A stretch of DNA of 41,935 bases from Actinomycetes bacterium (GTDB taxonomy: Bacteria > Actinomycetota > Actinomycetes > Jiangellales > Jiangellaceae), in assembly GCA_021793295.1 (NCBI GenBank), contig JAJYTA010000017.1, positions 1 to 41,935 on the forward strand. The letters are read 5' to 3'. Every line of letters begins with the position of its first letter. Positions within the stretch are counted from its first letter, which is position 1. The notes beneath the pieces were generated by a model. The model had not been told where the DNA came from, did not search any database, and saw only the letters and a program-made list of their open reading frames with translations. The translations under genes and the position numbers were made by a program. Below are positions 1,539-24,302 of this stretch, in pieces.

Positions 1539-1550
1539 ATGTTAGGACAT
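1539..1550. promoter_or_regulatory. IolR-like operator A (ATGTTAGGACAT)
   Basis: ATGT and ACAT arms flank TAGG. Read on the minus strand the core is TGTCCTAACA, a full match to KGWCHTRACA, the C. glutamicum IolR consensus as I remember it. It lies between the divergent GntR and importer genes, so it can control both. Confidence 0.6.
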
Positions 1551-1643
1551 TGACCACAGATGGGAGGCCTCGATGCTGCCCGCACGGTGACCGTCCACTG
1601 CGATTAGGTCACTGTTTCGTACGCGTTCTGGCATTCGTCAAGA

Positions 1644-1653
1644 GGTCATGACA
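1644..1653 (+). promoter_or_regulatory. IolR-like operator B (GGTCATGACA)
   Basis: A second full match to KGWCHTRACA, 43 bases before the binding-protein start. It contains the palindrome GTCATGAC. A paired site in the same divergent region supports cooperative or promoter-specific repression of the importer operon. Confidence 0.5.
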
Positions 1654-1695
1654 ATCTGACAGCCGGTTCACCGAAGGTTCAGCTCTGGAGGATTG

Positions 1696-3123
1696 ATGAA
1701 GCTCAACACCAGGCTGGGCGGCAGCGTCGCCGGCCTCCTCGCCGCGACCCTCGTCCTGGCCGCATGCGGCAGCGATGACGACGGCGGTTCCGGCGGTGGC
1801 GACCCCAGCCAGAACGCTGACGCCACCGAGGTGACGCTGACCATCACCGACAACGCGATCGTCGGCGGCAAGAACTCCGAAGGCGCCACCTGGGTCACCG
1901 AATGGGTGATTCCGGAGTTCACCGCGATGCAGGAAGAGAAGGGTGTCGACGTCACCGTCGAGTTCGAGGAGAACGGCGTCGACGACGAGGAGTACAAGAC
2001 CAAGATCGCCCTCGACCTGCAGTCCGGCGAGGGCGCTGACATCATCGGCATCGACGGCATCTGGACTGGCGAGTTCGCCGAGGCCGGCTACATCGCGCCG
2101 CTGAGTGACGTGGCCGGTGACGCCGTGGACGAGTGGGACGGCTGGGAGCAGATTCCCGAATCGGTGCAGCAGGCGATGTCGTTCGGCGGCGAGAAGTACG
2201 GGATCCCGCTGGGCACCGACGGCCGCGTCATCTTCTTCAACAAGGAGCTGTTCGCCCAGGCCGGGCTGCCCGAAGACTGGCAGCCGACCAGCTGGGACGA
2301 GCTTCTCGACGCCGCCCGTGCACTCCAGCAGCTCGATGGCGTCACGCCGATGCAGATCAACGCCGGAACGGCGATGGGCGAGGCCACCACCATGCAGGGC
2401 TTCCTCCCGTTCCTGGCCGGGACCGGTGAGCTCATCGAGGAGGACGGCGCCTGGCGCGGCGCCTCGGCCGGAGTCACCGAGACACTCGGTTTCTACGCCG
2501 AGGTGTACGGCGGCGACGAACCGCTCGGCGACCCGCTGATCCAGCAGGAGGCGCAGGGTCGCGATACGTCCTTCCAGATGTTCGCCGACGGTGAGCTGGG
2601 CATGCTGATCGAGAGCGACTACCTGTGGCGCTCGGTGATCAACCCCGAGGAGGGCATCGCCCCCATGCCGAACCGCGACGAGGTCGTCGGCTGGGCGAAG
2701 ATTCCCGCCCGTGAACCCGGCGCCGGCGTCAACGGCCAGGACTTCGTCAGCATGTCCGGCGGCACCGGGCGGGTGCTCAACCCGAACACCGAGTACCCGC
2801 AGCAGGCCTGGGAGCTGTTGCAGTTCATGAACTCGCCGGAGGCCTACGAGGCGATGCTGGCCGGCTCTGCCCGCATCACTCCGCGCGACGACGTCAATGC
2901 CGAGGCGCTGGCCGGCGACCCGATGCTGAGCTACATCGCTGAAGAGGTTCTGCCGATCACGTCGTACCGACCGTCGCTGGCGCTGTACCCGCAGGTGTCG
3001 GTGGCGCTGCAGGAGGCCACTGCTGCCATCGTCTCCGGTGACTCGCCGGAGGAAGCGGCCGCGTCGTACCAGAGTGAACTGGAGGACATCGTCGGCGATG
3101 ACGGCTCCGTTACAACAGACTGA
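1696..3123 (+). CDS. CUT1-type sugar ABC transporter substrate-binding lipoprotein
   Basis: The protein starts at ATG 1696, behind GGAGGA at 1687-1692; a TTG three bases upstream is a poorer start. It has a lipoprotein signal peptide ending in the lipobox LAAC (Cys about residue 25), then an acidic Gly/Ser linker and a family-1 extracellular solute-binding domain (VTLTITDNAIVGG, GIPLGTDGRVIFFNKELF, MNSPEAYEAM). At about 475 residues it is typical of COG1653 binding proteins. It is the first gene of an importer operon, and the next gene overlaps its end by 26 bases. The ligand cannot be read from the sequence; neighbours with an alpha-mannosidase and an IolE-like protein suggest a glycoside, possibly an inositol-containing one. 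Confidence 0.92.
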   Translation: MKLNTRLGGSVAGLLAATLVLAACGSDDDGGSGGGDPSQNADATEVTLTITDNAIVGGKNSEGATWVTEWVIPEFTAMQEEKGVDVTVEFEENGVDDEEYKTKIALDLQSGEGADIIGIDGIWTGEFAEAGYIAPLSDVAGDAVDEWDGWEQIPESVQQAMSFGGEKYGIPLGTDGRVIFFNKELFAQAGLPEDWQPTSWDELLDAARALQQLDGVTPMQINAGTAMGEATTMQGFLPFLAGTGELIEEDGAWRGASAGVTETLGFYAEVYGGDEPLGDPLIQQEAQGRDTSFQMFADGELGMLIESDYLWRSVINPEEGIAPMPNRDEVVGWAKIPAREPGAGVNGQDFVSMSGGTGRVLNPNTEYPQQAWELLQFMNSPEAYEAMLAGSARITPRDDVNAEALAGDPMLSYIAEEVLPITSYRPSLALYPQVSVALQEATAAIVSGDSPEEAAASYQSELEDIVGDDGSVTTD

Positions 3124-4048: not shown

Positions 4049-4866
4049 CCGTGCGGCAGTCCTTGGGTTTCATCGGCCGCTACCTCTTCATCGCCTTCGT
4101 TCTGGCGTTCTTCGCCCTCCCCCTGCTGTGGCTGGCCAGCGCGCCGTTCGACCGAGCACCGTCGTTGGCGGTCTCGTGGCCCGAGTTCACCCTCGCGAAT
4201 TTCCGGACGCTCGTCGACAACCCGTACGCGCTGGAATCGTTGTGGAACTCCGTCCTGCTCGCGGCCGGCACGACCGCGATCGTGCTGGTTCTCGCCGCGC
4301 TGGCGTCGTACGCACTCTCGAGGGTGCGCATCCCCGGGCGGGATGCCCTGCTCTACACGTTGCTCCTGCTGTCGTCCGTGGTCACCGGAACCGCGGCCAT
4401 GGTGCCCACGTTCCTGCTCATCTCCGAACTCGGGCTCATCGACCGCCAACTCGGGGTCATCCTCGTGCTGGCGGGCGGGTTGTTGCCGACGGCGATCTTC
4501 ATCCTCAAGGACTTCATGGACTCCACCCCGCGCTCGTACGAGGAGTCCGCGCGGGTGTACGGGGCGTCGTCGTTGCAGATCCTGCGCCATGTGGTCGTGC
4601 CGATCGCCCGCCCGGGCCTGGCGACGATCTCGGTGTGGGCGGTCGTGCAGGTGTGGGGCAATTTCCTGGTCCCCTTCATTCTGCTGCGCTCGGCCGACAA
4701 GCGACCCGCGGCGGTGACCATGTTCACCTTCTACACCGAGGGCGGCCAGCCCGACCTCGCGCTCATCTCCACGTTCTCCCTGCTCTTCTCCATCCCGGTA
4801 GTGGCCATGTACCTGTTCGTGAACCGCCGCTACGGCTTCCGCTTCCACGGAGGGATCAAGCGCTGA
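4045..4866 (+). CDS. Sugar ABC transporter permease (MalG/UgpE type)
   Basis: Second membrane subunit of the CUT1 importer, 273 residues with about six membrane segments beginning YLFIAFVLAFFALPLLW. The EAA loop is YEESARVYGASSLQILRHVVVPIARPG. The ATG at 4045 overlaps the preceding TGA (ATGA), so the two permeases are translationally coupled. It ends with the usual MalG-type C-terminus just before the ATPase start, which overlaps its TGA by one base. Confidence 0.93.
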   Translation: MTVRQSLGFIGRYLFIAFVLAFFALPLLWLASAPFDRAPSLAVSWPEFTLANFRTLVDNPYALESLWNSVLLAAGTTAIVLVLAALASYALSRVRIPGRDALLYTLLLLSSVVTGTAAMVPTFLLISELGLIDRQLGVILVLAGGLLPTAIFILKDFMDSTPRSYEESARVYGASSLQILRHVVVPIARPGLATISVWAVVQVWGNFLVPFILLRSADKRPAAVTMFTFYTEGGQPDLALISTFSLLFSIPVVAMYLFVNRRYGFRFHGGIKR

Positions 4867-5999
4867 TGGCGGCGATCACCACGCACCACCTCGTCAAGGA
4901 GTACCCCGGCGGCGTCCGCGCCGTCGACGGACTCGATCTCACCATCGACGACGGCGAGTTCTTCGCCCTGCTCGGACCATCCGGCTGCGGCAAGACGACC
5001 CTGCTGCGCACCATCGCCGGGCTGGAGTCGGCTACCGACGGCCGGCTGCACATCGGCGACCGCGACGTCACCGACCTGCAGCCGGGGCAGCGCCAGGTCG
5101 CCATGGTGTTCCAGGACTACGCGTTGTTCCCGCACATGTCCGTCGCCGACAACATCGCCTACCCGTTGAAGATCCAGAAGGTGGACAAGGGCGAACGGCT
5201 GGCCAAGGCCGAGGACGTCGGCGCCGGGCTGTCGCTCGACGGGCTGATGGCTCGCCGCCCGGGGCAGTTGTCCGGCGGCCAGCAGCAGCGCGTGGCGCTC
5301 GCGCGGGCGGTGGCGAGCAACCCGCAGGTGTTCCTGTTCGACGAGCCGTTGTCCAACCTCGACGCCCGGCTGCGCCTCGAGGCGAGGACCTTCCTGAAGC
5401 GATTGCAGCGCGATCTCGGCGTCACGACGGTGTTCGTGACCCACGACCAGGCCGAGGCGCTGGCGCTGGCCGACCGGATGGCCATCATGCGCGACGGGCG
5501 GATTCAGCAGGTCGGCAGCCCGCGCGAGGTGTTCGCCCGGCCGGCGAACACGTTCGTGGCCGGGTTCGTCGGCTCCACCCCGATGAACCTGCACCCTGCC
5601 GTCGTCGAGGGCGGTCGCGTGTCGCTGGCCGGCACGTCGCTTTCCCTGCCTCCCGACACCGCCGGCGCGGTGACGGACGGGCAGAAGGTCATCTGGGGGG
5701 CTCGGCCGGAGTACCTGTCCTGGTCGCCATCGACGCCCGCGCCGGACGACGACGCGGTCGAGGGCGAGGTCACAGTGGCGGAGAACCTGGGCGCCTCGGT
5801 GCTCGTCACGGTCAACGCGCAGGACACCTTGATCCAGGTGGTCGTGGACGAAGAGAACGAGCCCGACATCGGGGCCCGCGGCTGGGTGCGGGCGCGGCCG
5901 GGCCGAACGCTGCTGTTCGATGCCGAGAGCGAGGAACTGCTCGGAGCGTCGCCCGGCGTGCCCACGGTGTCGGCCGGCACCGCCGGCGAGTCGGCATGA
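4866..5999 (+). CDS. Sugar ABC transporter ATP-binding protein (MalK/UgpC type)
   Basis: ATPase that energises the importer, 377 residues. Walker A GPSGCGKTT is at residues 37-45, the Q-loop FQD near 82-84, the signature LSGGQQQR near 135-142, Walker B VFLFDEP near 155-161 and the switch VTHDQ follows. The C-terminal third is a TOBE-type domain (FVGSTPMNLHPAVVE, IWGARPEYLSW), the usual regulatory part of MalK and UgpC proteins. The start overlaps the permease stop and the end overlaps the next gene by ATGA. Presence of a dedicated ATPase in the operon means the importer is self-contained rather than relying on a shared MsiK-type ATPase. Confidence 0.94.
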   Translation: MAAITTHHLVKEYPGGVRAVDGLDLTIDDGEFFALLGPSGCGKTTLLRTIAGLESATDGRLHIGDRDVTDLQPGQRQVAMVFQDYALFPHMSVADNIAYPLKIQKVDKGERLAKAEDVGAGLSLDGLMARRPGQLSGGQQQRVALARAVASNPQVFLFDEPLSNLDARLRLEARTFLKRLQRDLGVTTVFVTHDQAEALALADRMAIMRDGRIQQVGSPREVFARPANTFVAGFVGSTPMNLHPAVVEGGRVSLAGTSLSLPPDTAGAVTDGQKVIWGARPEYLSWSPSTPAPDDDAVEGEVTVAENLGASVLVTVNAQDTLIQVVVDEENEPDIGARGWVRARPGRTLLFDAESEELLGASPGVPTVSAGTAGESA

Positions 6000-7207
6000 C
6001 CGAACGCATCGAGTTGCGGCTCGGTCCGGACGAGCGCGCGGAGTCGCCCTACCTCGAAGTGCCGTTCGAGGTGCCGGCCGGCGTCGGCGCGATCCACGTA
6101 CGCCTGGCCTACGCCGCCGGCCGCGAGGCTGTCATCGACCTCGGCTGTTCCGGCCCGCAGGGCTGGCGCGGCTGGTCCGGCGGTGCCAGGTCGCGGTTCA
6201 CCATCACCGCGGACGCGGCGACGCCGGGTTATGTGCCCGGCGAGCCGGAACCGGGCGTGTGGTCGGTGGTGTTGGGGCTACATCGCGTGCCGGGCGCCGG
6301 GGTCGGCGTCGTGGTGGAGATCGAGCTCGACGGCGCCGCCCCGCTCGATCCCGAGCCGCCCGAGCCGCCGGTGCCCCAGCGACCGCCGCGCCGGGCGCTG
6401 CCCGCCGAGCCGGGCCTGACGTGGTTGGCGTGCGACTTCCACGCTCACACGTTGCATTCCGACGGCACGCTCGGCATCGGAGAGCTCGCGGCGCACGCGG
6501 TCGAGTCTGGCCTAGACGTCCTGGCCGTCACCGATCACAACACCGTCAGCCACCATGCCGCGCTCCCCCGCGTCAGCGACCGGTACGGCGTCGGTCTACT
6601 GCCGGGGCAGGAGGTCACGACCGACCGTGGCCACGCCAACGCGTTCGGCGCCATCGACTGGGTCGACTTCCGCCGCCCCGCCGCTCACTGGGTCCGCGAC
6701 GTCGACGCCGCCGGCGGTCTGCTGTCGATCAACCACCCGCTGGCCGCTGACTGCTCATGGCACCAGCCGCTGGAGGCGAACGACCGTCCGCCGCTCGCCG
6801 AGATCTGGCACTGGAGCTGGCTGGACCGCACCTGGACCGGCCCACTCGCCTGGTGGGAGGCGTGGAACCCGAGCACGGTGCCCATCAGCGGCAGCGACTT
6901 CCACAGCCCCGCGCACGGACGTCCGCTGGCCCAACCGGTGACCTGGGTGGCATGCGAGTCGGCCGCACCGGAGGACGTTCTGGACGGGTTGCGCCAGGGC
7001 CGCACGGCGGTGACGGCAGGAACCAGCGAGCCCGTTCTGCTGCGCGTCGACGACGAACTGGTCGCAGTCGACGCCGACGGGCTGGTGCTGGCCGACACCG
7101 CCGGGCGGCGTCAGGTGGTCCATGGCGACATGGTGCGGTTCCCGGGAGCGCCCGGACCGCACCGCCTCGAGACGCCGCTGGCCGCCGTCGTCGCCCTCAC
7201 GCGGTGA
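5996..7207 (+). CDS. PHP-domain metallohydrolase, CehA/McbA family
   Basis: 403 residues. The N-terminal 135 residues look like a beta-sandwich. A Pro-rich linker leads to a PHP domain with metal ligands in DFHAHTLHSDG (from residue 147), VTDHN, NHP and GSDFH near the C-terminus. CehA/McbA members hydrolyse esters or phosphodiesters; the substrate here is unknown. It has no signal peptide, so it should act in the cytosol on whatever the importer brings in. It overlaps the ATPase gene by ATGA and is the last gene of the operon. The C-terminal beta-rich tail (VLLRVDDELVAVDADG) is normal for the family. A role in removing an acyl or phosphoryl group from the imported glycoside is inference. Confidence 0.85.
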   Translation: MTERIELRLGPDERAESPYLEVPFEVPAGVGAIHVRLAYAAGREAVIDLGCSGPQGWRGWSGGARSRFTITADAATPGYVPGEPEPGVWSVVLGLHRVPGAGVGVVVEIELDGAAPLDPEPPEPPVPQRPPRRALPAEPGLTWLACDFHAHTLHSDGTLGIGELAAHAVESGLDVLAVTDHNTVSHHAALPRVSDRYGVGLLPGQEVTTDRGHANAFGAIDWVDFRRPAAHWVRDVDAAGGLLSINHPLAADCSWHQPLEANDRPPLAEIWHWSWLDRTWTGPLAWWEAWNPSTVPISGSDFHSPAHGRPLAQPVTWVACESAAPEDVLDGLRQGRTAVTAGTSEPVLLRVDDELVAVDADGLVLADTAGRRQVVHGDMVRFPGAPGPHRLETPLAAVVALTR

Positions 7208-7257
7208 TCGTTGGCGCAATCTGGCTGCCATAGCCGCCGTTTCGCGCCAACGATCAC
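7204..7257. repeat. Palindromic element, copy 1; likely bidirectional terminator
   Basis: Perfect 14-base arms GTGATCGTTGGCGC (7204-7217) and GCGCCAACGATCAC (7244-7257) enclose a 26-base centre with a smaller hairpin (GGCT/AGCC). It sits between two convergent genes and supplies both TGA stop codons. A diverged copy lies at 20424-20477. Confidence 0.75.
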
Positions 7258-9995
7258 GCGACGTGGATGGTGGCGATCTCCCACGCCTTCAGGCTGACCT
7301 CGACGCGGCCGGTCTCCCCCTCCGGCGAGTCCACGGTGAGGGTCCCCAGCGGTCGGCCCAGCAGGTCGGCGCGCCGCGCCACGTCGAACGGCCCGGTCAC
7401 CGTCGCCGTGGTGGGTAGCTCCGACATGGCCACCAGCCGCACCTCCACGCCGCCGTCACGCGACCGAATCGAGGATGCCACGACGCCGTCGCCGGTGACG
7501 GTCAGCCCAGCCGCAGGCTCCGGGAGGTCCGCTCCCCTGCTGTCGGTGCCCCGAGCCACCAACGGATCGTGGCGGAACTGCTCGGCCCAGTGCACCGCGT
7601 CCGCGCCCGCCCAGCCGGATCTGTGCGCCAGCACCGCCAGGCGAGTGCGAACCGTACGACCGAGGTACTGCGCCTCCGGCACGGCGAACTGCGACCCAGC
7701 CGGTTCGTCACGCAACGGATGCACGTTCACACTCATCCAGCCGATCGAACGCAACAGCGTCAGCGCCAGCTCCGCGCCACCGTCGACCAGCTCGTACTCG
7801 GTCACGTGATCGAGCAACACGGTCGCGTCGCCAGCGGACACGAACGCCGATGCGGGGAACGTCGGCAAGGGGTACTCGCCCCAACCGCCCTCGGACGTCA
7901 GCCCGCGCTTGGTGACGGCGAACTGCCCGTCGGCGGCCGACTCCGACACCGGCGCCGACAGCGGGACGTGCAGCCGCAGGCGGTGATCGCGCGCCGGGTT
8001 GACGAACGAGACGTCCAAGCGGACGAACGGCTCACCGGCTCGCAGCTCCACGAGCGTCGTCACCGGCACCCGAACCGTCTCGGCGCTGCGCCGATCGACG
8101 TCCTCGGACAGCGACACCGGCCAGTCGTACTCGCGCACGACTCGCAACACCCCACGCAGCGGCCCGGCCTCCAGCGCCGTGACATCGACCGTCGACGGCG
8201 TCTCGACCAGACGGTCCGCCGCGGGGGGTGCGTAGTTGTAGCTGTCGCCGCGATCGCCGCCGGACACCAGCCGCCCGACGCCGCTCAGCGTCGTCCCGTC
8301 CGAGCCATGGACCTGCAGCGTGCCGTCCATGCTGACCTCCACCCGCACGAGGTCGGAGTGCATGCCCTCGCCGTCGACGTGAACAGCGCCGGACAGGGCG
8401 GACGGCTCCGGCGCCTCCACCTCTCGGCTTTGCTGCGCGGTCCGGATCGCGACTTGACCGGACCCGTCGACCGGCGTCGTCACGAGCACCCGGCGCCGCG
8501 GTTGAGCGATGGTGCGGACTCGCCACGGCCCGGGCCGGGAAGTCGCGGCGGCTTCGAGCTCGTCGCGTAACGCCGCGAGGTCGAAGTCCGGCGTGTTGGG
8601 AACCTGCGCCACCCGGAAGTCCAGCCGTCCGGGCTCGAGTTCGTAGGACTCGATCTGCTGACCGAACAGTTCTCGGCCGTGGATACGTCGCAGGACGCGG
8701 TCCAGCTCGCCGGCCTCGATCGTCTCGTCGCCGAGCAGGGTCTCCGAACACCCCAGCTCCTGCACGGGCAGCGCCGTGCCGTCCGGGACCGTCGCCACGA
8801 CCGGCGCATCGTCGTCCGGGGCCGGTACGTCGAGCTCGACCTGGACGACGCGCCGCCACGGGACGGTGTTCACCACGATGTGAGCGTCGCCGGCCACCCC
8901 GGAGGCGACGTCGGTCAGCACCCGCCCGCGCACGGCCCGGCCGATGTGCTCGGCTTCGTTCAGTCGCGCCTGCACCTGCTCAGCGGTCTCGTCGACGCCG
9001 CAGCCGGTGACAGAATCATGGGCGGTGCATTCGACGATCTTGCGCCAGGCCAGATCGAAGAACTGGCTGAAATCGTCGTTGGAGTACTGCGCGGCCAGCG
9101 CCTCGGCCTCCCCCACCGTCCGCTCGGCCTGGGCCATGGCCTGCTTGAGTCCCACCCGCACCGAGATGACGCCGGGCAGGATGTTGCCCCTGGCGTGGCT
9201 GCGTAGCTCGCCGGCGACCGTCGGCAGCTCGGCGTCGTGCGGGTCGAACCGGTCGACGTACTCAGCCAGCGACGCGACCTCGACGCCGGCCTCCACATCG
9301 CTGCGCACCAGTTCCATGAGGTCCGACCGCGGTGCGGAATGGTCCGTGCCGAGCATGCCGAGCACCGGGGCGTCGCCGTACCAGTCGCGGGTCCGGTCCC
9401 GGTAGTCGCGGATCGCCTCGCCCAGCCGCGACGGGAACGCGAAGAGGTCCAACGCGTTGCCGTAGCCGTCGAACAGATATTCCACCCGCACGGCGCTGCC
9501 GTCCGGCGCCTCCCAGCGGAACGCGTGGTGATCCAGCCGGCCCGGCACACCGCGCCACAAGGCGGCATGCCGGATGCCGGCCCGCGCCAGGATCTGCGGC
9601 ATCTGTGCGGTGTGGCCGAACATGTCCGGCAGGTAGCCGACCGGCATCGCGCCGCCGAGCTCGGTCGCGCTCTTCCAGCCGATCTCGAGGTTGCGCACGA
9701 TCGTCTCGCCGGAGCACAGGAATTCGTCGAGCAGGATGTGCCACGGCCCGATGGCCAGTTGTCCGGCCCGTACGAGCTCCACGACGCGGTCCCGGTTCTC
9801 GGGCCGGATCTCCAGGTAGTCGTCGATGGCGGCGTATTGGCCATCGAGGGTGAACTTGAACGCCGCGTCGGCTTCAGCGCGTGCGATGACGTCGTCGATC
9901 ACGTCGGTCAGCCGCTGACGGAACACCTGAAAAGGCTCGTACCACTCACGATCCCAATGCGTGTGTGGAACCAGGACGATCTGCGTATCGTTCAC
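7254..9995 (-). CDS. Glycoside hydrolase family 38 alpha-mannosidase
   Basis: 913 residues, close to bacterial GH38 length. The N-terminal catalytic barrel opens with VPHTHWDREWY (residues 9-19, zinc-site region), and YLPDMFGHTAQMPQIL carries the probable nucleophile Asp124. Later GH38 features include LGTDHSAPR and the helical region with CTAHDSVTGCGVDETAEQV; the last ~450 residues form the beta-sandwich domains. No signal peptide, so it should act in the cytosol on imported mannosides. The GTG start overlaps the upstream dehydrogenase stop (GTGA), making it the third gene of the operon. Retaining GH38 enzymes release mannose from alpha-mannosides; the exact linkage here cannot be told. Confidence 0.93.
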   Translation of the reverse strand: MNDTQIVLVPHTHWDREWYEPFQVFRQRLTDVIDDVIARAEADAAFKFTLDGQYAAIDDYLEIRPENRDRVVELVRAGQLAIGPWHILLDEFLCSGETIVRNLEIGWKSATELGGAMPVGYLPDMFGHTAQMPQILARAGIRHAALWRGVPGRLDHHAFRWEAPDGSAVRVEYLFDGYGNALDLFAFPSRLGEAIRDYRDRTRDWYGDAPVLGMLGTDHSAPRSDLMELVRSDVEAGVEVASLAEYVDRFDPHDAELPTVAGELRSHARGNILPGVISVRVGLKQAMAQAERTVGEAEALAAQYSNDDFSQFFDLAWRKIVECTAHDSVTGCGVDETAEQVQARLNEAEHIGRAVRGRVLTDVASGVAGDAHIVVNTVPWRRVVQVELDVPAPDDDAPVVATVPDGTALPVQELGCSETLLGDETIEAGELDRVLRRIHGRELFGQQIESYELEPGRLDFRVAQVPNTPDFDLAALRDELEAAATSRPGPWRVRTIAQPRRRVLVTTPVDGSGQVAIRTAQQSREVEAPEPSALSGAVHVDGEGMHSDLVRVEVSMDGTLQVHGSDGTTLSGVGRLVSGGDRGDSYNYAPPAADRLVETPSTVDVTALEAGPLRGVLRVVREYDWPVSLSEDVDRRSAETVRVPVTTLVELRAGEPFVRLDVSFVNPARDHRLRLHVPLSAPVSESAADGQFAVTKRGLTSEGGWGEYPLPTFPASAFVSAGDATVLLDHVTEYELVDGGAELALTLLRSIGWMSVNVHPLRDEPAGSQFAVPEAQYLGRTVRTRLAVLAHRSGWAGADAVHWAEQFRHDPLVARGTDSRGADLPEPAAGLTVTGDGVVASSIRSRDGGVEVRLVAMSELPTTATVTGPFDVARRADLLGRPLGTLTVDSPEGETGRVEVSLKAWEIATIHVA

Positions 9996-12080: not shown

Positions 12081-12092
12081 TTGTCCTGACAA
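12081..12092. promoter_or_regulatory. IolR-like operator C (TTGTCCTGACAA)
   Basis: The core TGTCCTGACA matches KGWCHTRACA exactly and is identical to the core at 24293-24302. It lies 72 bases before the isomerase start and beside TATACG on the minus strand, a possible -10 of that operon. Confidence 0.6.
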
Positions 12093-13741: not shown

Positions 13742-13752
13742 CGTCTGTCGGG

Positions 13753-14010
13753 TTACGCGCCGGCCAGGGGCTCGATCCTCGCCAGAGCGTCGGCCAACTT
13801 GTCCTTCTCGATCTCGAGGTCGTAGCGAGATTGCAAGCAGTCAACGATCTCGATGTCCTCCGGTCCTGCTGGTGTCCATCTGAAACAGATTCGCCACTGC
13901 TGGTTGATCCGGATGCTGTATTGCCCAGCCCGATCGCCGTGCAGCTTCTCCAGACGATCACCCGGCGGCACACGGAGATCAACGTTAATAACGTGCGGCG
14001 CTATGCCCAT
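13753..14010 (-). pseudogene. Decayed higBA toxin-antitoxin locus: HigB fragment fused to HigA tail
   Basis: The 85-residue frame contains the second half of a HigB/RelE-type toxin ([19 protein letters not shown], then [16 protein letters not shown] and [10 protein letters not shown]). The usual first ~40 residues of HigB are missing. Immediately after VDC, where HigB normally ends in VDYH, the frame continues as [19 protein letters not shown]. That resembles the end of a HigA antitoxin (typically LQ.RYDLE). I read this as two losses: the toxin 5' end, and a deletion joining toxin and antitoxin in frame. The fragment lies 24 bases downstream of the sugar ATPase gene and shares a hairpin terminator with the sigma gene. 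A small functional protein is possible but unlikely. Confidence 0.7.
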
Positions 14011-14034
14011 GGGTTTCTTCTTCCATGCCCTGCG

Positions 14035-14826: not shown

Positions 14827-14831
14827 CGCCG

Positions 14832-15890: not shown

Positions 15891-16888
15891 CGCGTTCCGC
15901 GCTCGGCGTACTCAGCGATCGCGTCGATGTTCTCCGACGTGATGAACGACGGCCCGGTCAGCACCGGCTGCCCGCCGCCGATGTCGTGGCCGTTGGTCAC
16001 CTGTAGCCACAGGCCGCTGACGGCGAGGTAGCCCTGCAGGTAGGGCTGCTGATCCACCGCCCACAGCACGTCGCCGCTCTCGATGGCGCTCACCAGCTCG
16101 GCGTTGGTGTCGAACGTGACCACCTGCGCGTCGGAGCCGGCGTCGGCCACCGATTGCACCGCGGTGACGGCGAAGGGCGCGCCCAGTGTGAGCACCCGTT
16201 CGATCGACGGATCCTCGGCGAGCTTGGCCTGAATGGTCGAGCGGACCGACGGCATGTTCGTGCCGTCGACGTAGAGCTTCTCCATGGTGCCGGTGAACGT
16301 CGCGGCGGCGCCGTCGCACCGGGCCTCCAACGACACGCTGCCCTGCTCGTGGATGACACACAGCACCTGCGACACGCCTGCTTCACTCAAGCGTTCGCCC
16401 GCCGCTTGCCCGGCCACGGTCTCGTCCTGGCCGAAGAACATGATCGCGCCGGCATCCTGCCAGGCGTCTTGTCCGGCGTTCAGCGCCACCACCGGGATAC
16501 CGGCCGCGACGGCCCGTTCGACGGCCGGGCCCATGGCGTCGGGTTTGGACATGGTGACGGCGATGCCGTCGACGTCGGAGTCGATGGCGTTCTGCACGAG
16601 GTTCGCCTGCTCGGCGGCCTCGGGGCTGTTGGAGTAGGCGAGCTCGACGTTGTGGCGCGCCGCGGCTTCCTCCGCACCGTTGCGCACGATGGTCCAGAAC
16701 GTGTCGCCGGGTGCTTCGTGGGTGATGAAGGCGATGGTGTGTTCCGCCGGACCGGAACCGCCCCCGCCACCACCCTCGTCGCTGTCTTCTTCGGCCTCAC
16801 GCCCGCCAGAGCTGCTGCATGCGGCCAGCAGCGCGAGGCCTGCCAGGCCCGCGAGCATGCGGTGTGCACGGCCGTGTCGTCTCGCCAT
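15887..16888 (-). CDS. Sugar ABC transporter substrate-binding lipoprotein (RbsB type)
   Basis: 333 residues. The signal peptide MARRHGRAHRMLAG ends in lipobox LAAC, then a Ser/Gly/Glu-rich tether (GGREAEEDSDEGGGGGG) and a periplasmic-binding-protein-like fold (TIAFITHEAPGDTFW, DSDVDGIAVTMSKPDAM, GIPVVALNAGQD). The start is ATG 16888 with GGAG at the right distance; an upstream in-frame start adds a charged tail that would spoil the signal. It captures the sugar outside the cell for the next two gene products. Its place directly after mmsA makes inositol the most likely ligand; other cyclitols or ribose-like sugars cannot be excluded. Confidence 0.93.
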   Translation of the reverse strand: MARRHGRAHRMLAGLAGLALLAACSSSGGREAEEDSDEGGGGGGSGPAEHTIAFITHEAPGDTFWTIVRNGAEEAAARHNVELAYSNSPEAAEQANLVQNAIDSDVDGIAVTMSKPDAMGPAVERAVAAGIPVVALNAGQDAWQDAGAIMFFGQDETVAGQAAGERLSEAGVSQVLCVIHEQGSVSLEARCDGAAATFTGTMEKLYVDGTNMPSVRSTIQAKLAEDPSIERVLTLGAPFAVTAVQSVADAGSDAQVVTFDTNAELVSAIESGDVLWAVDQQPYLQGYLAVSGLWLQVTNGHDIGGGQPVLTGPSFITSENIDAIAEYAERGTR

Positions 16889-16933
16889 GGTGGATCTCCT
16901 CACTCGCCGGTGAACGGATACCACTGTGATGGA

Positions 16934-18430
16934 TCATGACGTCGTCGGGAAGTGGTAACTGGCACCTGCTGGATGATCCACCGACGGCCAGCGGGACGTG
17001 ACGACCTTTGCGCGGGTGTAGAAGGCGACGCCCTCGGGCCCGTGGATGTGCGATTGCCCGAACAGCGAGTCCTTCCACCCGCCGAACGAGTAATACGCCA
17101 TCGGCACCGGGATGGGCACGTTGATGCCGATCATGCCCACCTGCACACCGCGCTGGAAGCGCCGCGCCGCCGAACCGCTGGAGGTGAAGATCGCGGTGCC
17201 GTTGCCGTACGGGTTGGCGTTGATCAGCGCGATGGCGTCGTCGACGGTGTCGGCACGCACGACCGAGAGCACCGGGCCGAAGATCTCCTCACGGTAGACG
17301 TCCATCTCCGGGGTGACCTGGTCGAGGACCGTCGGCCCGACCCAGAACCCGGCGTCGTGGCCCGGCACGGTCAACCCGCGGCCGTCCACGGCCAACCGGG
17401 CTCCTTGCGCCTCGCCGGTCGCGATCAGCCCGGTGATGCGATCCCGCGCGGCTGCCGTGATGACCGGGCCCATCTCGCTCGAGTCGTCCCGCCCGGGACC
17501 CACGCGCACTTCGGCCGCCTTCGCGGCCACCGCCTCGACCACCTCGTCAGCGCCGTCCCCGACGGTGACTGCGGCCGAGATCGCCATGCAGCGCTCCCCC
17601 GCCGAGCCCATCGCCGCGGCGACGAGATGGTCCGAGACGTAGTCGACGTCGGCATCAGGCAACACGACGGCGTGGTTCTTCGCTCCACCCAGCGCCTGGA
17701 CCCGCTTTCCGGCCATGGTCGCGCGCTCGTGGATGTAGCGCGCGATCGGTGTCGAGCCCACGAACGACACCGCGTCGACGCCGTCGTGATCAAGAATCGC
17801 GTCGACCGCGGTCTTGTCGCCGTGCACGACGTTGAACACGCCGTCGGGCAAGCCCGCTTCGGCCCACAACCGGGCAACGATCACCGACGCCGACGGGTCG
17901 CGCTCACTGGGCTTGAGTACGAAGGCGTTACCGCAGGCGATGGCCACCGGATGCATCCACATCGGCACCATGACCGGGAAGTTGAACGGCGTGATGCCGG
18001 CGACCACGCCCAGCGGCTCCCGGAAGCTGAACACGTCGACCCCGGTCGACACCTGGTCGGAGTACTCGCCCTTGAGCAGCTGTGGGATGCCGCAGGCGAA
18101 CTCGACCACCTCGAGCCCGCGCTGCACCTCGCCGAGGGCGTCGGAGACGACCTTGCCGTGCTCGTCGGCGATGGTCTCAGCCAGCTCGCGCGCATGCCGG
18201 CTGACCAGGTCGCGGAAGGCGAACAGCACCTTGGTGCGCGTGCTCAGTGATGTCTGCGCCCATGCGAGACCGGCCTGCTGCGCCGAACGGACGGCGGTGT
18301 CGACGTCGGCAGGCTCGGCGAGCAGGACCTCGGCCTGCTGCTGGCCGGTCGCGGGGTTCCACACCGGCGCGGTCCGGGTGGACTCCGCCGCCGTGGGCTT
18401 GCCGTCGATCCAGTGCTCGATCGTTCTCAT
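16934..18430 (-). CDS. mmsA: CoA-acylating methylmalonate-semialdehyde dehydrogenase (MmsA/IolA)
   Basis: Oxidises malonate semialdehyde (the inositol route) or methylmalonate semialdehyde (the valine route) to acetyl-CoA or propionyl-CoA with NAD and CoA, the last step of inositol catabolism. 498 residues, the expected length. The N-terminus IEHWIDGK, TPFNFPVMVPMWM (Asn150), QALGGAKNHAVV and GSAGERCMA with catalytic Cys281 are hallmark MmsA segments, as is the C-terminal YSFGGWKDSLFGQSHIHGPEG. ATG 18430 is chosen since it opens the canonical N-terminus; the longer frame adds 13 unconserved residues. It lies 52 bases after iolD and 45 before the binding-protein gene. Confidence 0.95.
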   Translation of the reverse strand: MRTIEHWIDGKPTAAESTRTAPVWNPATGQQQAEVLLAEPADVDTAVRSAQQAGLAWAQTSLSTRTKVLFAFRDLVSRHARELAETIADEHGKVVSDALGEVQRGLEVVEFACGIPQLLKGEYSDQVSTGVDVFSFREPLGVVAGITPFNFPVMVPMWMHPVAIACGNAFVLKPSERDPSASVIVARLWAEAGLPDGVFNVVHGDKTAVDAILDHDGVDAVSFVGSTPIARYIHERATMAGKRVQALGGAKNHAVVLPDADVDYVSDHLVAAAMGSAGERCMAISAAVTVGDGADEVVEAVAAKAAEVRVGPGRDDSSEMGPVITAAARDRITGLIATGEAQGARLAVDGRGLTVPGHDAGFWVGPTVLDQVTPEMDVYREEIFGPVLSVVRADTVDDAIALINANPYGNGTAIFTSSGSAARRFQRGVQVGMIGINVPIPVPMAYYSFGGWKDSLFGQSHIHGPEGVAFYTRAKVVTSRWPSVDHPAGASYHFPTTS

Positions 18431-18482
18431 CGTCCTCGGTCCTTCCTCGACTTCTGGAGACTTGTCCACCCTTCCGAGCCCG

Positions 18483-20402
<1,920 letters not shown>

Positions 20403-20423
20403 AGCGCTCCTCCACTCTCCCCG

Positions 20424-20477
20424 GTGATCGTTGGCACCTTCTGGTCGCTATTCCAGCCAGTTCGCGCCAATGATCAC
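20424..20477. repeat. Palindromic element, copy 2
   Basis: Arms GTGATCGTTGGC (20424-20435) and GCCAATGATCAC (20466-20477) differ from perfect pairing at one position. The right half shares TTCGCGCCAA-GATCAC and a CTGG centre with the copy at 7204-7257. It lies between iolB and iolD and supplies the iolB stop codon. Confidence 0.7.
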
Positions 20478-21355
20478 GACTCGGTGCTGCTGCTCAGCGG
20501 CAGGCGCGGGTCCGGCTGCTGATGCTCCCACTCGTCGCGGACCCACGCGTGCGCCGGATCGTCGCGGATCAGCCACTCCCGGTTCTGCCCCGGTCCGGCC
20601 ATGACGTTGAGGTAGTACAGGTGGTAGCCGGGTGCGGCGACGGACGGGCCGTGCCAGCCGTGCGGAATCAGGACGACGTCGCCGGTGTGTACTTCGGCCA
20701 GGACGTCGATCGGGCGCTCCGGGGTGCCGTACACCCGGTGAAAGGCGAACCCGTCCCCGCCAGGGCCACCGCTGACCTCGAAGTAGTAGATCTCTTCCAG
20801 GTCCGACTCCACGCCCGGTACGTCCTGGTCGTGCTTGTGCGGTGGGTAGGACGACCAGTTGCCCGACGGCGTGATGACCTCCACGGCGATGAGCCGGTCG
20901 GCCTCGAACTCGCCGGCGGAGCCGAAGTTGTTCACCTGCCGGGTCGCGTTGCCGCGGCCGCGGACCTCGACCGCGATGTCCTCGGCCGCGCGATACCGTG
21001 CCGGCAACCGTCGGGTGCATCGCGCCGCGGGCAGGGCGAACCGGCCGCCGTTCTCGGAGGTGACGACGACGTCGGCGTCACGCGGGACGTACACGGTGTC
21101 GCTGACCCGGCTGAAGACGTCTCGCCGCCCCTGAATCGTGAACGGCTCGCCGTCGCAGGTCACCGTGCACGACCCGGCGAGAGGAAGGACGAACATCTCC
21201 TCCTCGCCGGTCGCGAAGGCGTGGCTGCCTCCGGCCGGTAGCTCCAGCACGCGCAGCGACGTCCACGCCCAGCCGTCGACGTTGGCCGGCGTGAGCTCGA
21301 CGGTGAACGGGCCGCTGCCGGCGCTGCCGGCCGGCCGGTAGTAGGTGTCATTCAC
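20474..21355 (-). CDS. iolB: 5-deoxy-glucuronate isomerase (IolB)
   Basis: Isomerises 5-deoxy-glucuronate to 2-deoxy-5-keto-gluconate in inositol catabolism. 293 residues, bicupin KduI/IolB fold. Recognisable segments are WTSLRVLELPAGGSH, EEEMFVLPLAGSC, SSYPPHKHDQD (metal-binding His residues), LEEIYYFEV, and VLIPHGWHGPSVAAPGY. The start is GTG 21355 (GTG AAT GAC) preceded by AAGGAGAGGG at good spacing. The C-terminal end, SSSTES, is encoded partly by a palindromic element that also gives the stop codon, so the last residues may have been altered by its insertion. Confidence 0.96.
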   Translation of the reverse strand: MNDTYYRPAGSAGSGPFTVELTPANVDGWAWTSLRVLELPAGGSHAFATGEEEMFVLPLAGSCTVTCDGEPFTIQGRRDVFSRVSDTVYVPRDADVVVTSENGGRFALPAARCTRRLPARYRAAEDIAVEVRGRGNATRQVNNFGSAGEFEADRLIAVEVITPSGNWSSYPPHKHDQDVPGVESDLEEIYYFEVSGGPGGDGFAFHRVYGTPERPIDVLAEVHTGDVVLIPHGWHGPSVAAPGYHLYYLNVMAGPGQNREWLIRDDPAHAWVRDEWEHQQPDPRLPLSSSTES

Positions 21356-21401
21356 GTGTGTCCCTCTCCTTCCGCGCCCCTTCTGGACGTGCGGTCGGTG
21401 C

Positions 21402-22289
21402 TCACAGCAGGCTCACCGCGGTGTCGACGGCGGCAGCCACGTCGCCGTCCGGCGGGTAGAGCAGGGTCCGGCCGACCATCAGGCCCTTGGCCGTCGGCAG
21501 TCGCAAGACCTTCTCCCACTGCCGGAACGCCACGTCCGGATCGTCGGGCACCTCACCGCCCAGCAGTACGGCCGGCAGCGTGGAGGCGGCCAACACCCGC
21601 TCCATACCGTCGGGATCGTCGTCGACCACCGGCAATTTCAGCCAGGTGTAGGCCGACGTGGTGGCCAGCCCGGAGGCGATGGCGACCGACCGGACGACCG
21701 CATCGGTCGACAGGTCGTTGCGTACGCGGCCGTCGACCCGTCGCGCGATGAACGGCTCGACCATCGCGGTACGACGGCGTGCGGCCAGCTCGTTCACCGC
21801 CTGCGCGCATGCGTGCAGGGCCCCCGCGGTAGCCGGGTCCTCGAAATCGATACGCAGGAGCATCTTGCCCATGTCGAAGCCCATCGCCTCGATGCCCGCG
21901 GCGTCGTAACCGGTGAACCGGTCGTCGATCTCGAACGCCGCGCCGGCCAGCCCGCCCCGGTTCATCGAGCCGACCACGACCTTGCCGTCCAAGGCGCCGA
22001 GGAGCAGCAAGTCCTCGAGGATGTCTGCCGTGGCCAGCACGCCGTTGACGCCGGGCCGTTCCAGGGCGACGAGCAGGCGGTCGAGCAGCTCGCCCCGGTC
22101 GGCCATCGCCATCGGGTCGCGGCCGGCGCCCAGCGCTCCGCGAGCCGGGTGGTCGGCGGCGATCACCAGCAACTTGCCGGAGGGGCCGACCAAGCTGTCC
22201 GGCCGGACCCGCCGGGCCGCAGCCTCGGCGATCGCCTCCGGCCGGCTGACCCGCTGCTCGACGATCGAACGGACACGTTCAGCGGACAC
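21402..22289 (-). CDS. Cgl0159-like (beta/alpha)8 aldolase, candidate IolJ function
   Basis: 295 residues of the Cgl0159/DeoC-LacD type barrel family. Family features visible are LLVIAADHPARGALG, NGVLATADILEDLLLLG, VVGSMNRGGL, GFDMGKMLLRID, a conserved-looking TWLKLPVVDD with a Lys suited to Schiff-base chemistry, and LPAVLLGGEVPDD. I choose GTG 22289 (GGAGGAG upstream, 11-base overlap with iolC); the extra frame to 22454 is shadow of iolC. Every other step of the iol route is present in this operon except the aldolase that splits 2-deoxy-5-keto-gluconate 6-phosphate, so I infer this gene supplies it. The function is not proven by motif alone. Confidence 0.8.
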   Translation of the reverse strand: MSAERVRSIVEQRVSRPEAIAEAAARRVRPDSLVGPSGKLLVIAADHPARGALGAGRDPMAMADRGELLDRLLVALERPGVNGVLATADILEDLLLLGALDGKVVVGSMNRGGLAGAAFEIDDRFTGYDAAGIEAMGFDMGKMLLRIDFEDPATAGALHACAQAVNELAARRRTAMVEPFIARRVDGRVRNDLSTDAVVRSVAIASGLATTSAYTWLKLPVVDDDPDGMERVLAASTLPAVLLGGEVPDDPDVAFRQWEKVLRLPTAKGLMVGRTLLYPPDGDVAAAVDTAVSLL

Positions 22290-23226
22290 CGGCGCTCTCC
22301 TCCAGGAACGTGGACACCTCGGCGGTGGTCGGCATGGCATCGGAGCAGGCGAGCCTGGTCGCGACGATGGCTCCGGCAGCGTTGGCGAAGCGCACACAGG
22401 CCTCCAACGGCGCGCCGGACAGCAGCATGTGGCACAGCGCTCCGCCGAAGGCATCGCCGGCGCCGAGCCCGTTGAGGACCTCGACGGTGATGGGCGGGAT
22501 GTCGTAGCTGCCGGTGTCGTCCACGGCCAGGACCCCGTGTGGACCGCGCTTCACGATGGCGGTGGCGACGCCGAGCTCGCGCAGTGCCGCAGCGGCCTGT
22601 TCAGGGTCGCGGGTGCCGACGGCGGTCTCGCATTCGTCGAGGTTGCCCACGGCGACCGTGGCGTGGCCCAGCGCGGCTCGGTAGTGGACTCGAGCGGCCT
22701 CGCGCGACTCCCAGAACATCGGGCGGTAGTCCAGGTCGAACACCGTGTGACCACGGCGCCCGCGCGCTTCCAGCGCCCCGAGCGTGGCCGAACGGCTCGG
22801 CTCCTGGCACAGCCCGGTGCCGGTCATCCAGAAGATCTGCGCTGATCGCACCGCATCCAGGTCAACCTCGCCGGGGCCGATCTGCAAGTCCGGCGCCGTG
22901 GGCGTGCGGCCGTAGAAATAGATCGGGAAGTGGTCGGGCGGAAAGATCTCGCACAGCGTCACCGGCGTCGCCAGCGACGGCACCGACGTGACGAAACGGT
23001 CGTCGACCCCATAGCCCTGCAGCGCCTGATGGACGAAGCGGCCGAGCGGGTCGTCGCCGGTGCGCGTGATGACCGCCGAACGACGCCCGTGCCGGGCTGC
23101 GGCGACTGCGACGTTGGTCGCCGAGCCGCCGAGATACTTGGTGAAGCTCGTGACATCTTCCAGCCCGACGCCACTCTGGTTCGGGTAGATGTCGACACCC
23201 ACCCGGCCCATCGTCAAGACGTCCAT
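22279..23226 (-). CDS. iolC: 5-dehydro-2-deoxygluconokinase (IolC), PfkB family
   Basis: Phosphorylates 2-deoxy-5-keto-gluconate with ATP. 315 residues. The N-terminus MGRVGVDIYPNQSGVGLEDV is the signature IolC start, and GGSATNVAVAAARHG (from residue 33) is the substrate-binding glycine loop. FDLDYRPMFW is typical for IolC. The PfkB active-site motif NGLGAGDAF ends with catalytic Asp258. ATG 23226 is chosen because it opens the conserved N-terminus after AAAGG. It overlaps the end of iolG by 13 bases and the aldolase gene by 11, indicating translational coupling. Confidence 0.96.
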   Translation of the reverse strand: MDVLTMGRVGVDIYPNQSGVGLEDVTSFTKYLGGSATNVAVAAARHGRRSAVITRTGDDPLGRFVHQALQGYGVDDRFVTSVPSLATPVTLCEIFPPDHFPIYFYGRTPTAPDLQIGPGEVDLDAVRSAQIFWMTGTGLCQEPSRSATLGALEARGRRGHTVFDLDYRPMFWESREAARVHYRAALGHATVAVGNLDECETAVGTRDPEQAAAALRELGVATAIVKRGPHGVLAVDDTGSYDIPPITVEVLNGLGAGDAFGGALCHMLLSGAPLEACVRFANAAGAIVATRLACSDAMPTTAEVSTFLEESAGVR

Positions 23227-24269
23227 GTCGCACCTTTCGAAGAATCGGGGTGGTCGGTACCGTCCCCGCTCGTTGCTCGTACCTCGTCGATGGTGACCGG
23301 GCGGCGTTCCCGCCTGGACCGGGTCGCGGCCTCGGCGACGTAGAAGCTCTCCAGGGCGTCGGCGACCGTGCACGCGCTGGCGGCAGCGCCCCGGGCCACC
23401 TGGATGAAGTGGTTGATCTCGGCCTCGTAGGCCGCCTCGAATCGCGGCCAGAACTCCCGGAACGCCGGGCCCGCGGGAAACTTCACCGCGGGCTCGGCCG
23501 ACACGAGCGGGGCGTGCTCGTCGAGCCCGACGACGTACGTGGCCGCCGTCCCGGCGATTTCCATCCGCACGTCATAGCCGGCGCCGTTGTACCGCGAGCC
23601 GGACAGGGTGGCCAAGGTGTCGTCGTCGAGCGTCAGCACCGCCGCGGACTCGTCAACGTCGTCGTTGGCCCCGAACACCTCGGCACCTCGGTTCGCGCCG
23701 GTGGCGTAGACCTCCACCACCTCGTGTCCCGTCACCCATCGCAGCATGTCGAAATCATGCACGTGGCAATCACGGAAGATGCCGCCCGAAGTCGGGACGT
23801 ACTCCGGTGGCGGCGGTGCGGCATCGGCGGTGATGACGTGGGCGCGGCGCACCTCGCCCAGCGCTCCGGACCGGACGGCTTCACGCGCGGCCACGTAGCC
23901 GGCGTCGAAGCGACGCTGGAAGCCGATCTGGTTCGGCACGCCGGCGGAGCTCACTTCGTCGAGCACTCGCAGGGTGCCCGCGACGTCGACCGCGACCGGC
24001 TTCTCGCAGAACACGGGCAGTCCCGCGCGAGCCGCGGTGATCAGCAACTCGGCATGGGCCGAGGTGTCGGCGGCGATGATCACGGCGTCGACGTCGCGGA
24101 AAACATCGTCGGAATGCTCGAGCGCCTCGGCGTCCAGCGCCTGGGCAACCGCGCGAGCCCGGGCGGGCACCGCATCGGCGATGCGCAACGTCGTGACCTG
24201 CGGGTGGCGTCGTACGACCTGAGCATGTGCGGCTCCGATCCGACCTACGCCGACCAGCCCCACCCGCAT
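23214..24269 (-). CDS. iolG: Inositol 2-dehydrogenase (IolG), Gfo/Idh/MocA family
   Basis: NAD-dependent oxidation of myo-inositol to 2-keto-myo-inositol, the first catabolic step. 351 residues. Rossmann motif GLVGVGRIGAAHA at the N-terminus, AEPV-type motif FCEKPVAVD, and the IolG active-site region QIGFQRRFDAGY and IFRDCHVHDFDMLRWVTG with Lys/Asp/His catalytic residues. Of two nearby ATGs I prefer 24269, which stands six bases after GGGAGGA; ATG 24275 touches that site. First gene of the iol operon, under a promoter whose likely -10 (TAATAT) is directly followed by the CAGGACATATGTCCTG palindrome. The extra frame upstream crosses the operator and is not real. Confidence 0.94.
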   Translation of the reverse strand: MRVGLVGVGRIGAAHAQVVRRHPQVTTLRIADAVPARARAVAQALDAEALEHSDDVFRDVDAVIIAADTSAHAELLITAARAGLPVFCEKPVAVDVAGTLRVLDEVSSAGVPNQIGFQRRFDAGYVAAREAVRSGALGEVRRAHVITADAAPPPPEYVPTSGGIFRDCHVHDFDMLRWVTGHEVVEVYATGANRGAEVFGANDDVDESAAVLTLDDDTLATLSGSRYNGAGYDVRMEIAGTAATYVVGLDEHAPLVSAEPAVKFPAGPAFREFWPRFEAAYEAEINHFIQVARGAAASACTVADALESFYVAEAATRSRRERRPVTIDEVRATSGDGTDHPDSSKGATWTS

Positions 24270-24283
24270 GTGCATTCCTCCCA

Positions 24284-24302
24284 CAGGACATATGTCCTGA
24301 CA
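24284..24302. promoter_or_regulatory. Composite operator at iolG: LacI-type palindrome overlapping IolR-like site D
   Basis: CAGGACATATGTCCTG (24284-24299) is a perfect 16-base palindrome. Its right half continues into TGTCCTGACA (24293-24302), a full KGWCHTRACA match identical to operator C. The site lies over the expected transcription start of iolG, just before its ribosome binding site. Confidence 0.65.

What the first reader, a model, noticed from the sequence alone, without database searches (positions are those of the whole stretch)
1539..24302. One IolR-like operator sits in front of the GntR gene, the importer operon, the alpha-mannosidase operon and the iol operon
Seen: TGTTAGGACA (1540-1549, minus read), GGTCATGACA (1644-1653), TGTCCTGACA (12082-12091) and TGTCCTGACA (24293-24302) all match KGWCHTRACA, with a one-mismatch copy at 24385-24394. 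I found no other full match elsewhere in the window by eye. Known (from memory): this is the binding motif of C. glutamicum IolR, a GntR repressor of inositol genes. Inference: the GntR protein at 762-1505 is the common repressor, so three operons spread over 23 kb form one inositol-responsive regulon.
Basis: partly seen in the sequence, partly recalled or inferred. Interest (0 to 1): 0.75.

Follow-up and report, generated by a model that had tools for sequence, protein, structure and literature searches.

The report
Inositol repressor regulon with mannosidase module
A repressor of the inositol-use genes in this soil actinobacterium very likely also controls a linked import-and-mannosidase gene set, which suggests that these bacteria eat a mannose-bearing form of inositol.

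Summary
The four sites exist, all upstream of genes. A matrix trained only on upstream regions of GntR orthologs from other families ranks exactly these four first in the window (27.1, 20.8, 18.9, 12.5; next 2.5). The fifth copy (24385-24394) scores -9.4 and is dropped.

The regulon claim is strongly supported by comparison, though untested by binding. Outside Jiangellaceae the GntR orthologs usually sit beside iol genes, and 38 of 54 carry the same operator. Within Jiangellaceae the iolG operator is kept in 20 of 20 genomes and the mannosidase-operon operator in 14 of 14 Haloactinopolyspora/Jiangella genomes. In 12 Jiangella genomes 24 of 28 TTGTCNNGACAW sites lie in those two promoters. A neighbouring LacI gene has its own box, so the rival that LacI owns the iol site is weak.

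Elsewhere importer, PHP hydrolase, Gfo oxidoreductase and GH38 mannosidase form one operon, in 9 of 11 cases with the operator in front. So this looks like an IolR/SCO6974-type regulon extended to a mannosyl-inositol module. The inducer and the substrate are inferred. The C. glutamicum identity of the motif could not be checked.

The parts
762..1505 (-). gntR: GntR/UTRA (HutC-subfamily) repressor, predicted regulator of all sites below
   Evidence: Pfam GntR 54 bits and UTRA 124 bits; best solved relative 2ra5, 278 bits; orthologs beside iol genes in other families
1539..1550 (.). Operator O1 (ATGTTAGGACAT), overlapping a TATGTT -10-like hexamer directed at the importer and lying 34 bp from the gntR start
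   Evidence: matrix score 20.8; conserved upstream of gntR in Jiangellaceae
1643..1654 (.). Operator O2 (AGGTCATGACAA), the weaker site, 42 bp before the SBP start; inside a near-invariant 20-bp block GTCATGACAATCTGACAGCC
   Evidence: score 12.5; block conserved in Haloactinopolyspora and Jiangella
1696..3123 (+). CUT1 importer, solute-binding lipoprotein
   Evidence: Pfam SBP_bac_1 117 bits
3038..4048 (+). CUT1 importer, permease 1
   Evidence: Pfam BPD_transp_1 57 bits
4045..4866 (+). CUT1 importer, permease 2
   Evidence: Pfam BPD_transp_1 53 bits; start placed by reading frame
4866..5999 (+). CUT1 importer, ATPase (UgpC/MalK type)
   Evidence: ABC_tran, OB_MalK, TOBE_2; PRK11650 UgpC 392 bits, below its cut-off of 432
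5996..7207 (+). CehA/McbA-type PHP metallohydrolase, possibly a phosphoesterase
   Evidence: NF038032 133 bits, cut-off 80
7254..9995 (-). GH38 alpha-mannosidase, MngB-like
   Evidence: Glyco_hydro_38N 118 bits; PRK09819 326 bits, below its cut-off of 1138
9992..11125 (-). GfoB: Gfo/Idh/MocA oxidoreductase (start uncertain)
   Evidence: Pfam GFO_IDH_MocA 63 bits; nearest solved DgpA and inositol dehydrogenase
11110..12009 (-). IolE-like inosose dehydratase; first gene of the mannosidase operon
   Evidence: TIGR04379 134 bits, below its cut-off of 290; nearest solved chains are IolE; ortholog lies inside the iol operon in six related genomes
12081..12092 (.). Operator O3 (TTGTCCTGACAA) of the iolE-like/gfoB/GH38 operon
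   Evidence: score 18.9; conserved in 14 of 14 Haloactinopolyspora/Jiangella
14035..16924 (-). CUT2 importer genes at the end of the iol operon (ATPase, permease, solute-binding protein)
   Evidence: rhizopine-type SBP 194 bits, RbsA/YtfR-like ATPase, YjfF-like permease
16934..18469 (-). iolA-type CoA-acylating (methyl)malonate-semialdehyde dehydrogenase
   Evidence: TIGR01722 708 bits, over cut-off
18483..20402 (-). iolD
   Evidence: TIGR04377 940 bits, over cut-off
20474..21355 (-). iolB
   Evidence: TIGR04378 301 bits, over cut-off
21402..22454 (-). Cgl0159-like protein of actinobacterial iol clusters
   Evidence: PF22649 405 bits
22279..23373 (-). iolC
   Evidence: TIGR04382 384 bits, over cut-off
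23214..24275 (-). iolG, first gene of the iol operon
   Evidence: TIGR04380 303 bits, below its cut-off of 355; best iolG match of the genome
24292..24303 (.). Operator O4 (ATGTCCTGACAT, within ATATGTCCTGACATAT), just before the iolG ribosome-binding site
   Evidence: score 27.1, best of the window; conserved upstream of iolG in 20 of 20 Jiangellaceae examined
24356..24371 (.). Probable separate box of the LacI protein (GTGAACACATATTCAC; TGGAAnnCGCATTCCA-like in relatives)
   Evidence: alignment of the divergon
24403..25446 (+). LacI-family regulator divergent from iolG (possible second regulator)
   Evidence: RbsR/LacI-type matches up to 188 bits, none over its cut-off

Best explanation
The window holds a scattered regulon of one GntR/UTRA repressor of the actinobacterial inositol type. 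A dimer is predicted to bind the palindrome WTGTCNNGACAW at three regions: its own divergon with a CUT1 importer (two operators), the promoter of the iolE-like/gfoB/GH38 operon, and the promoter of the iolG-C-Cgl0159-B-D-A-CUT2 operon. Each operator overlaps or directly follows the -10 region, so the protein should block transcription, its own included, until an intermediate of inositol breakdown (or inositol) binds the UTRA domain. The co-regulated importer, PHP hydrolase, Gfo oxidoreductase, IolE-like dehydratase and GH38 mannosidase form one conserved catabolic module. It probably takes up an inositol-containing mannoside and feeds its inositol into the iol pathway. Shown here: the sites, their conservation, the gene order. 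Inferred: binding, repression, inducer, substrate.
For: Sites and independent matrix. Operator upstream of 38 of 54 distant GntR orthologs, shuffle mean 0.055, most beside iol genes. iolG operator in 20 of 20 Jiangellaceae; operator before the iolE-like gene in 14 of 14 Haloactinopolyspora/Jiangella. In 12 Jiangella genomes 24 of 28 TTGTCNNGACAW sites are these two promoters, and 12 of 15 ATGTYHTRACAT sites are the gntR promoter. The importer-PHP-(IolE)-Gfo-GH38 operon recurs in other families, with 11 operator-like sites before the SBP gene against 0.6 expected in all the sequence scanned; two of these operons are divergent from iolC. One genome has IolE-GfoB-importer-PHP-GH38-GntR in a row. 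DNA contacts: NagR Arg48, which reads G-4, is kept as Arg55, while NagR Arg38, which reads G-5, is Ile45 here, in line with T at -5. The other UTRA proteins that could be aligned have PSERE-, PPERT- or PTEGE-type helices instead.
Against: No binding or expression data. O2 has only one good half-site. In the Phytoactinopolyspora-like genomes the GH38 gene is missing, so the mannosidase link is not universal. A LacI gene with its own box sits beside iolG and may share or dominate control there. Sixteen of 54 ortholog loci lack the operator in the tested form. IolG, the IolE-like protein and GH38 all score under their curated equivalog cut-offs.
Confidence: 0.88

Rival explanations
1. The iolG site belongs to the divergent LacI-family protein, not to GntR. 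In the window it overlaps a perfect palindrome, AGGACATATGTCCT (24286-24299), and LacI-type inositol repressors are known, so only the gntR/importer and mannosidase regions form the GntR regulon.
For: Palindrome seen in the sequence. LacI-family inositol regulators (7 groups) exist (PMC4052901).
Against: The AGGACATATGTCCT palindrome is not conserved in Haloactinopolyspora alba or Jiangella, whereas TTGTCNNGACAW is. LacI has its own conserved TGGAAnnCGCATTCC box next to its start. Operators of the same type stand before iolG in the six Phytoactinopolyspora-like genomes, where no LacI match was found in the fetched stretch.
Confidence: 0.06
2. Dual control: GntR acts at 24292-24303 and LacI acts as a second, perhaps substrate-specific, regulator of the same iol promoter and of the genes behind lacI. 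(This adds to the best explanation rather than excluding it.)
For: Both boxes lie in the same 130-bp divergon and both are conserved. C. glutamicum also has a GntR (IolR) and a LacI (IpsA) protein around inositol, and S. coelicolor has two GntR proteins on inositol genes (SCO6974, SCO6256; references cited in PMC6608401).
Against: The LacI box lies nearer to lacI than to iolG and may serve only lacI. It is degenerate in the window.
Confidence: 0.45
3. Another UTRA/GntR protein of the genome owns these operators.
For: Nine UTRA matches in the genome.
Against: Only the window protein matches at E <= 1e-60. The others that could be aligned are 28-34% identical and have helices resembling NagR or DasR type, not DNEI/SRPT. 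Orthologs of the window protein carry this operator before their own genes.
Confidence: 0.03
4. Chance: a ten-base motif found by eye that happens to lie between genes.
For: KGWCHTRACA alone is common in the genome (52 hits).
Against: The independent matrix and the conservation across 20 family members and other families rule this out.
Confidence: 0.01

Closest known systems
SCO6974 and SCO6256 of Streptomyces coelicolor (GntR regulators of myo-inositol catabolism; Yu et al. 2015 and 2016, known here only as references cited in PMC6608401)
   Same: GntR proteins acting on inositol catabolic genes. The window protein is about 57% identical over 237 residues to the protein of PDB 2ra5; from memory 2ra5 is SCO6256.
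   Different: In the window the repressor gene lies 23 kb from iolG and is divergent from a sugar importer; its predicted regulon includes a mannosidase/importer module. The SCO sequences themselves were not compared by name.
IolR of Corynebacterium glutamicum (GntR-type repressor of inositol genes; Klaffl et al. 2013)
   Different: C. glutamicum uses the secondary transporters IolT1/IolT2. Sequence orthology and motif could not be tested (paper not held; motif string found in no held paper).
NagR (YvoA) and DasR, GntR/HutC repressors of GlcNAc use
   Same: Same fold and subfamily (126 and 103 bits), and the same GTC-NN-GAC core with GT and AC four bases apart (PMC4494728).
   Different: T instead of G at operator position -5, matched by Ile45 in place of NagR Arg38; different target genes.
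IpsA and LacI-type inositol regulators
   Same: The adjacent LacI gene could be functionally similar; IpsA dissociates from DNA with myo-inositol (PMC3899939).
   Different: Different fold and different box; IpsA controls inositol-lipid synthesis rather than breakdown.

Membership tests
GntR superfamily, HutC subfamily | N-terminal GntR winged helix plus C-terminal UTRA domain | tested here: met
   PF00392 54 bits and PF07702 124 bits, both over cut-off
GntR superfamily, HutC subfamily | Palindromic operator with GT and AC four bases apart | tested here: met
   WTGTYNNRACAW upstream of 38 of 54 distant orthologs and at O1, O3 and O4; subfamily spacing from PMC4494728
Actinobacterial GntR-type inositol repressor (IolR/SCO6974 kind) | Gene linked to iol genes in most genomes | tested here: met
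   47 of 54 loci outside Jiangellaceae have iol genes within the fetched flank; in the window the gene is 23 kb from iolG
Actinobacterial GntR-type inositol repressor (IolR/SCO6974 kind) | Operator in the promoter of the iol operon | tested here: met
   24292-24303, conserved in 20 of 20 Jiangellaceae
Actinobacterial GntR-type inositol repressor (IolR/SCO6974 kind) | Represses iol genes and is released by inositol or an intermediate | not testable with these tools
   needs binding assays and expression data
C. glutamicum IolR, strict orthology | Reciprocal best match with Cg0196 and the motif KGWCHTRACA from its footprints | not tested
   protein and paper not available by name
Operator of the divergent LacI protein (rival) | The palindrome AGGACATATGTCCT conserved at iolG/lacI | tested here: not met
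   absent in Haloactinopolyspora alba and Jiangella, where a different LacI-like box is conserved
IolE (inosose dehydratase) for the first gene of the mannosidase operon | Passes the curated TIGR04379 cut-off | tested here: not met
   134 bits against 290; but the nearest solved chains are IolE and the ortholog takes the iolE place in related iol operons
Mannosylglycerate hydrolase MngB | Passes the curated PRK09819 cut-off | tested here: not met
   326 bits against 1138: a GH38 mannosidase, but not MngB itself

The most novel reading that the evidence does not exclude
The importer, PHP hydrolase, IolE-like dehydratase, Gfo oxidoreductase and GH38 mannosidase make up an undescribed actinobacterial pathway for mannosylated (phospho)inositols, such as headgroups of phosphatidylinositol mannosides or of fungal mannosyl-inositol-phosphoceramides. 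They would be imported whole, dephosphorylated, cut to mannose and inositol, and the inositol passed to the iol pathway, all under one inositol repressor.
Probability: 0.35. Interest if true: 0.7.

Novelty: new variant of a known kind. Interest (0 to 1): 0.52.

Why it matters
GntR-type control of inositol genes is known in a few actinobacteria. Here the operator is defined from dozens of genomes and shown to cover a conserved importer/mannosidase module that the first-stage title listed as separate operons. This gives a testable substrate class for an uncharacterised CUT1 importer, CehA/McbA hydrolase and GH38 enzyme, and it explains where the iolE step missing from this iol operon is encoded. 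It also shows a case where the repressor gene has moved away from the genes it controls while the operators stayed.

Tried and rejected
Considered first that the iolG site was the LacI operator, because of the perfect palindrome AGGACATATGTCCT; rejected after alignment of relatives. The fifth copy at 24385 was rejected (score -9.4). Extra regulon members in the own genome: ten further WTGTYNNRACAW sites. Five are inside ORFs as called. Of the rest, the one at C200:72590 (17.1) precedes another sugar-binding protein with its own UTRA regulator 4 kb away, and none of the sites whose neighbours were examined has an evident inositol link. Site C139:376 (21.5) stays unexplained. The C. glutamicum motif paper was not held and the motif string is in no held paper. 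Literature searches for inositol with mannosidase gave nothing relevant.

Full report
What is there. The window is one contig of a Jiangellaceae genome, very near Haloactinopolyspora alba (GntR 88% identical over the best segment; a same-genus genome G027). Left to right: gntR (762-1505, -), divergent from a CUT1 importer (SBP, two permeases, ATPase) and a CehA/McbA-type PHP hydrolase (1696-7207, +); then, on the minus strand, an operon read from 12009 down to 7254: IolE-like dehydratase, Gfo/Idh/MocA oxidoreductase, GH38 mannosidase; a SigB-like sigma factor (+); the iol operon, read from iolG at 24275 down through iolC, the Cgl0159-like gene, iolB, iolD, iolA and a CUT2 importer to 14035; and a LacI gene (24403-25446, +) divergent from iolG.

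The sites. All four KGWCHTRACA matches are real and are the only exact ones in the window. The motif as written is too loose for the genome (52 hits, reversed control 25). I therefore built an independent matrix. Orthologs of the GntR protein were collected from outside Jiangellaceae (54 loci, 45-67% identity; two of them are second copies from Phytoactinopolyspora-like genomes). The palindrome WTGTYNNRACAW lies within 350 bp upstream of 38 of them; shuffles give 0.055 and never more than 1. The next best has 2.5. The mismatched copy at 24385 scores -9.4.

Conservation in the family. gntR/importer: O1 is kept as ATGTYNTAACAT in 11 of 12 relatives (L032 has ATCTCTTAACAT), and O2 lies in a near-invariant block GTCATGACAATCTGACAGCC in Haloactinopolyspora and Jiangella. 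The iolE-like operon: TTGTCAGGACAA (once TTGTCATGACAA) in 14 of 14 Haloactinopolyspora/Jiangella genomes. iolG: TTGTCNNGACAW (the window has ATGTCCTGACAT) in 14 of 14 of these, and TTGTCNTGACAT or, once, TTGTCATTACAT in the six Phytoactinopolyspora-like genomes. Genome-wide, 12 Jiangella genomes of 5.6-7.9 Mb hold 28 TTGTCNNGACAW sites, 24 of them at iolG and the iolE-like gene, and 15 ATGTYHTRACAT sites, 12 of them at gntR.

Why GntR and not something else. Outside the family the GntR gene itself usually stands beside iol genes (47 of 54 loci), as expected of the known GntR-type inositol repressors (C. glutamicum IolR: PMC9603128; SCO6974 and SCO6256: references in PMC6608401). The helix LSRPTxR is nearly invariant. 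In the NagR-DNA structure Arg48 reads G-4 and Arg38 reads G-5 (PMC4333415). Aligned, Arg48 corresponds to Arg55 (kept) and Arg38 to Ile45. The operator keeps G at -4 and has T at -5, in line with this change; that is inference by analogy. The other UTRA proteins of the genome that could be aligned have different helices. The LacI rival: the window's perfect palindrome AGGACATATGTCCT is not conserved, and the LacI gene has its own conserved box. A shared role of LacI is still open.

What the module is. In Phytoactinopolyspora-like genomes the ortholog of the IolE-like protein (73-77% identical) lies inside the iol operon. The window's iol operon lacks an iolE, although iolE is one of the core genes in actinobacterial clusters (PMC9430895). 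So the 'mannosidase operon' most likely carries the iolE step; the genome has a second IolE-like gene at a contig end (C182), so this is likely rather than certain. A search of 395 genomes of the class for the GH38 protein found 17 genomes outside the family. In 14 of them the gene is linked to Gfo, PHP and/or importer genes, mostly in one operon in the order SBP-permease-ATPase-PHP-(IolE)-Gfo-GH38. Of the 11 such loci that include the SBP promoter, 9 carry an operator-like site there (11 sites in all; 0.6 expected in all the sequence scanned). In L259 and L261 this promoter is divergent from iolC with two sites of 23-24 bits. In L253 IolE, GfoB, importer, PHP, GH38 and GntR follow each other. 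So the three regions of the window look like a broken-up version of a unit that is contiguous elsewhere.

How it works, step by step. Shown by sequence: operators, their positions at or next to -10-like hexamers, their conservation, the gene content. Inferred: the dimer of GntR blocks the three promoters and its own; a ligand in the UTRA domain releases it; the importer brings in an inositol-bearing mannoside; PHP and GH38 free the inositol; IolG/Gfo, IolE and the rest of the iol enzymes break it down. The inducer is not known. A direct mannosidase-inositol link is inferred from co-regulation and gene order only.

Verdict. Observation confirmed (four of four sites; the fifth dropped). Interpretation supported, with the C. 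glutamicum orthology and the inducer left open. As a regulator this is a new member of a known kind; with the importer/mannosidase module it is a new variant.

Noticed in passing
13753-14010 (-): A HigB-like (RelE-type) toxin gene (PF05015, 42.5 bits) between the sigma factor and the CUT2 ATPase; no partner antitoxin was looked for.
   Followed up: no
24403-28715 (+): LacI gene followed by a Gfo/Idh oxidoreductase, a DUF993 protein (605 bits) and an IolO/sugar-isomerase-like TIM barrel; conserved behind lacI in Jiangella (L160). Probably the LacI-regulated sugar or polyol pathway.
   Followed up: partly
1645-1664: A near-invariant 20-bp block GTCATGACAATCTGACAGCC before the importer, longer than the operator alone; it may hold a second promoter or another protein's site.
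   Followed up: no
G000:C139:376 (L114): An operator-like site of 21.5 bits elsewhere in the genome with no evident inositol gene nearby.
   Followed up: partly
L157:9215 (G037:C238): A third perfect TTGTCCTGACAA in one Jiangella genome, 75 bp before a 660-aa secreted-looking protein; a possible further regulon member.
   Followed up: partly
L034-L041, about 118-131 bp upstream of gntR: Most Jiangella genomes have an extra AGGTCTAGACCT palindrome between O1 and O2, close to a DasR/NagR-type dre core.
   Followed up: no
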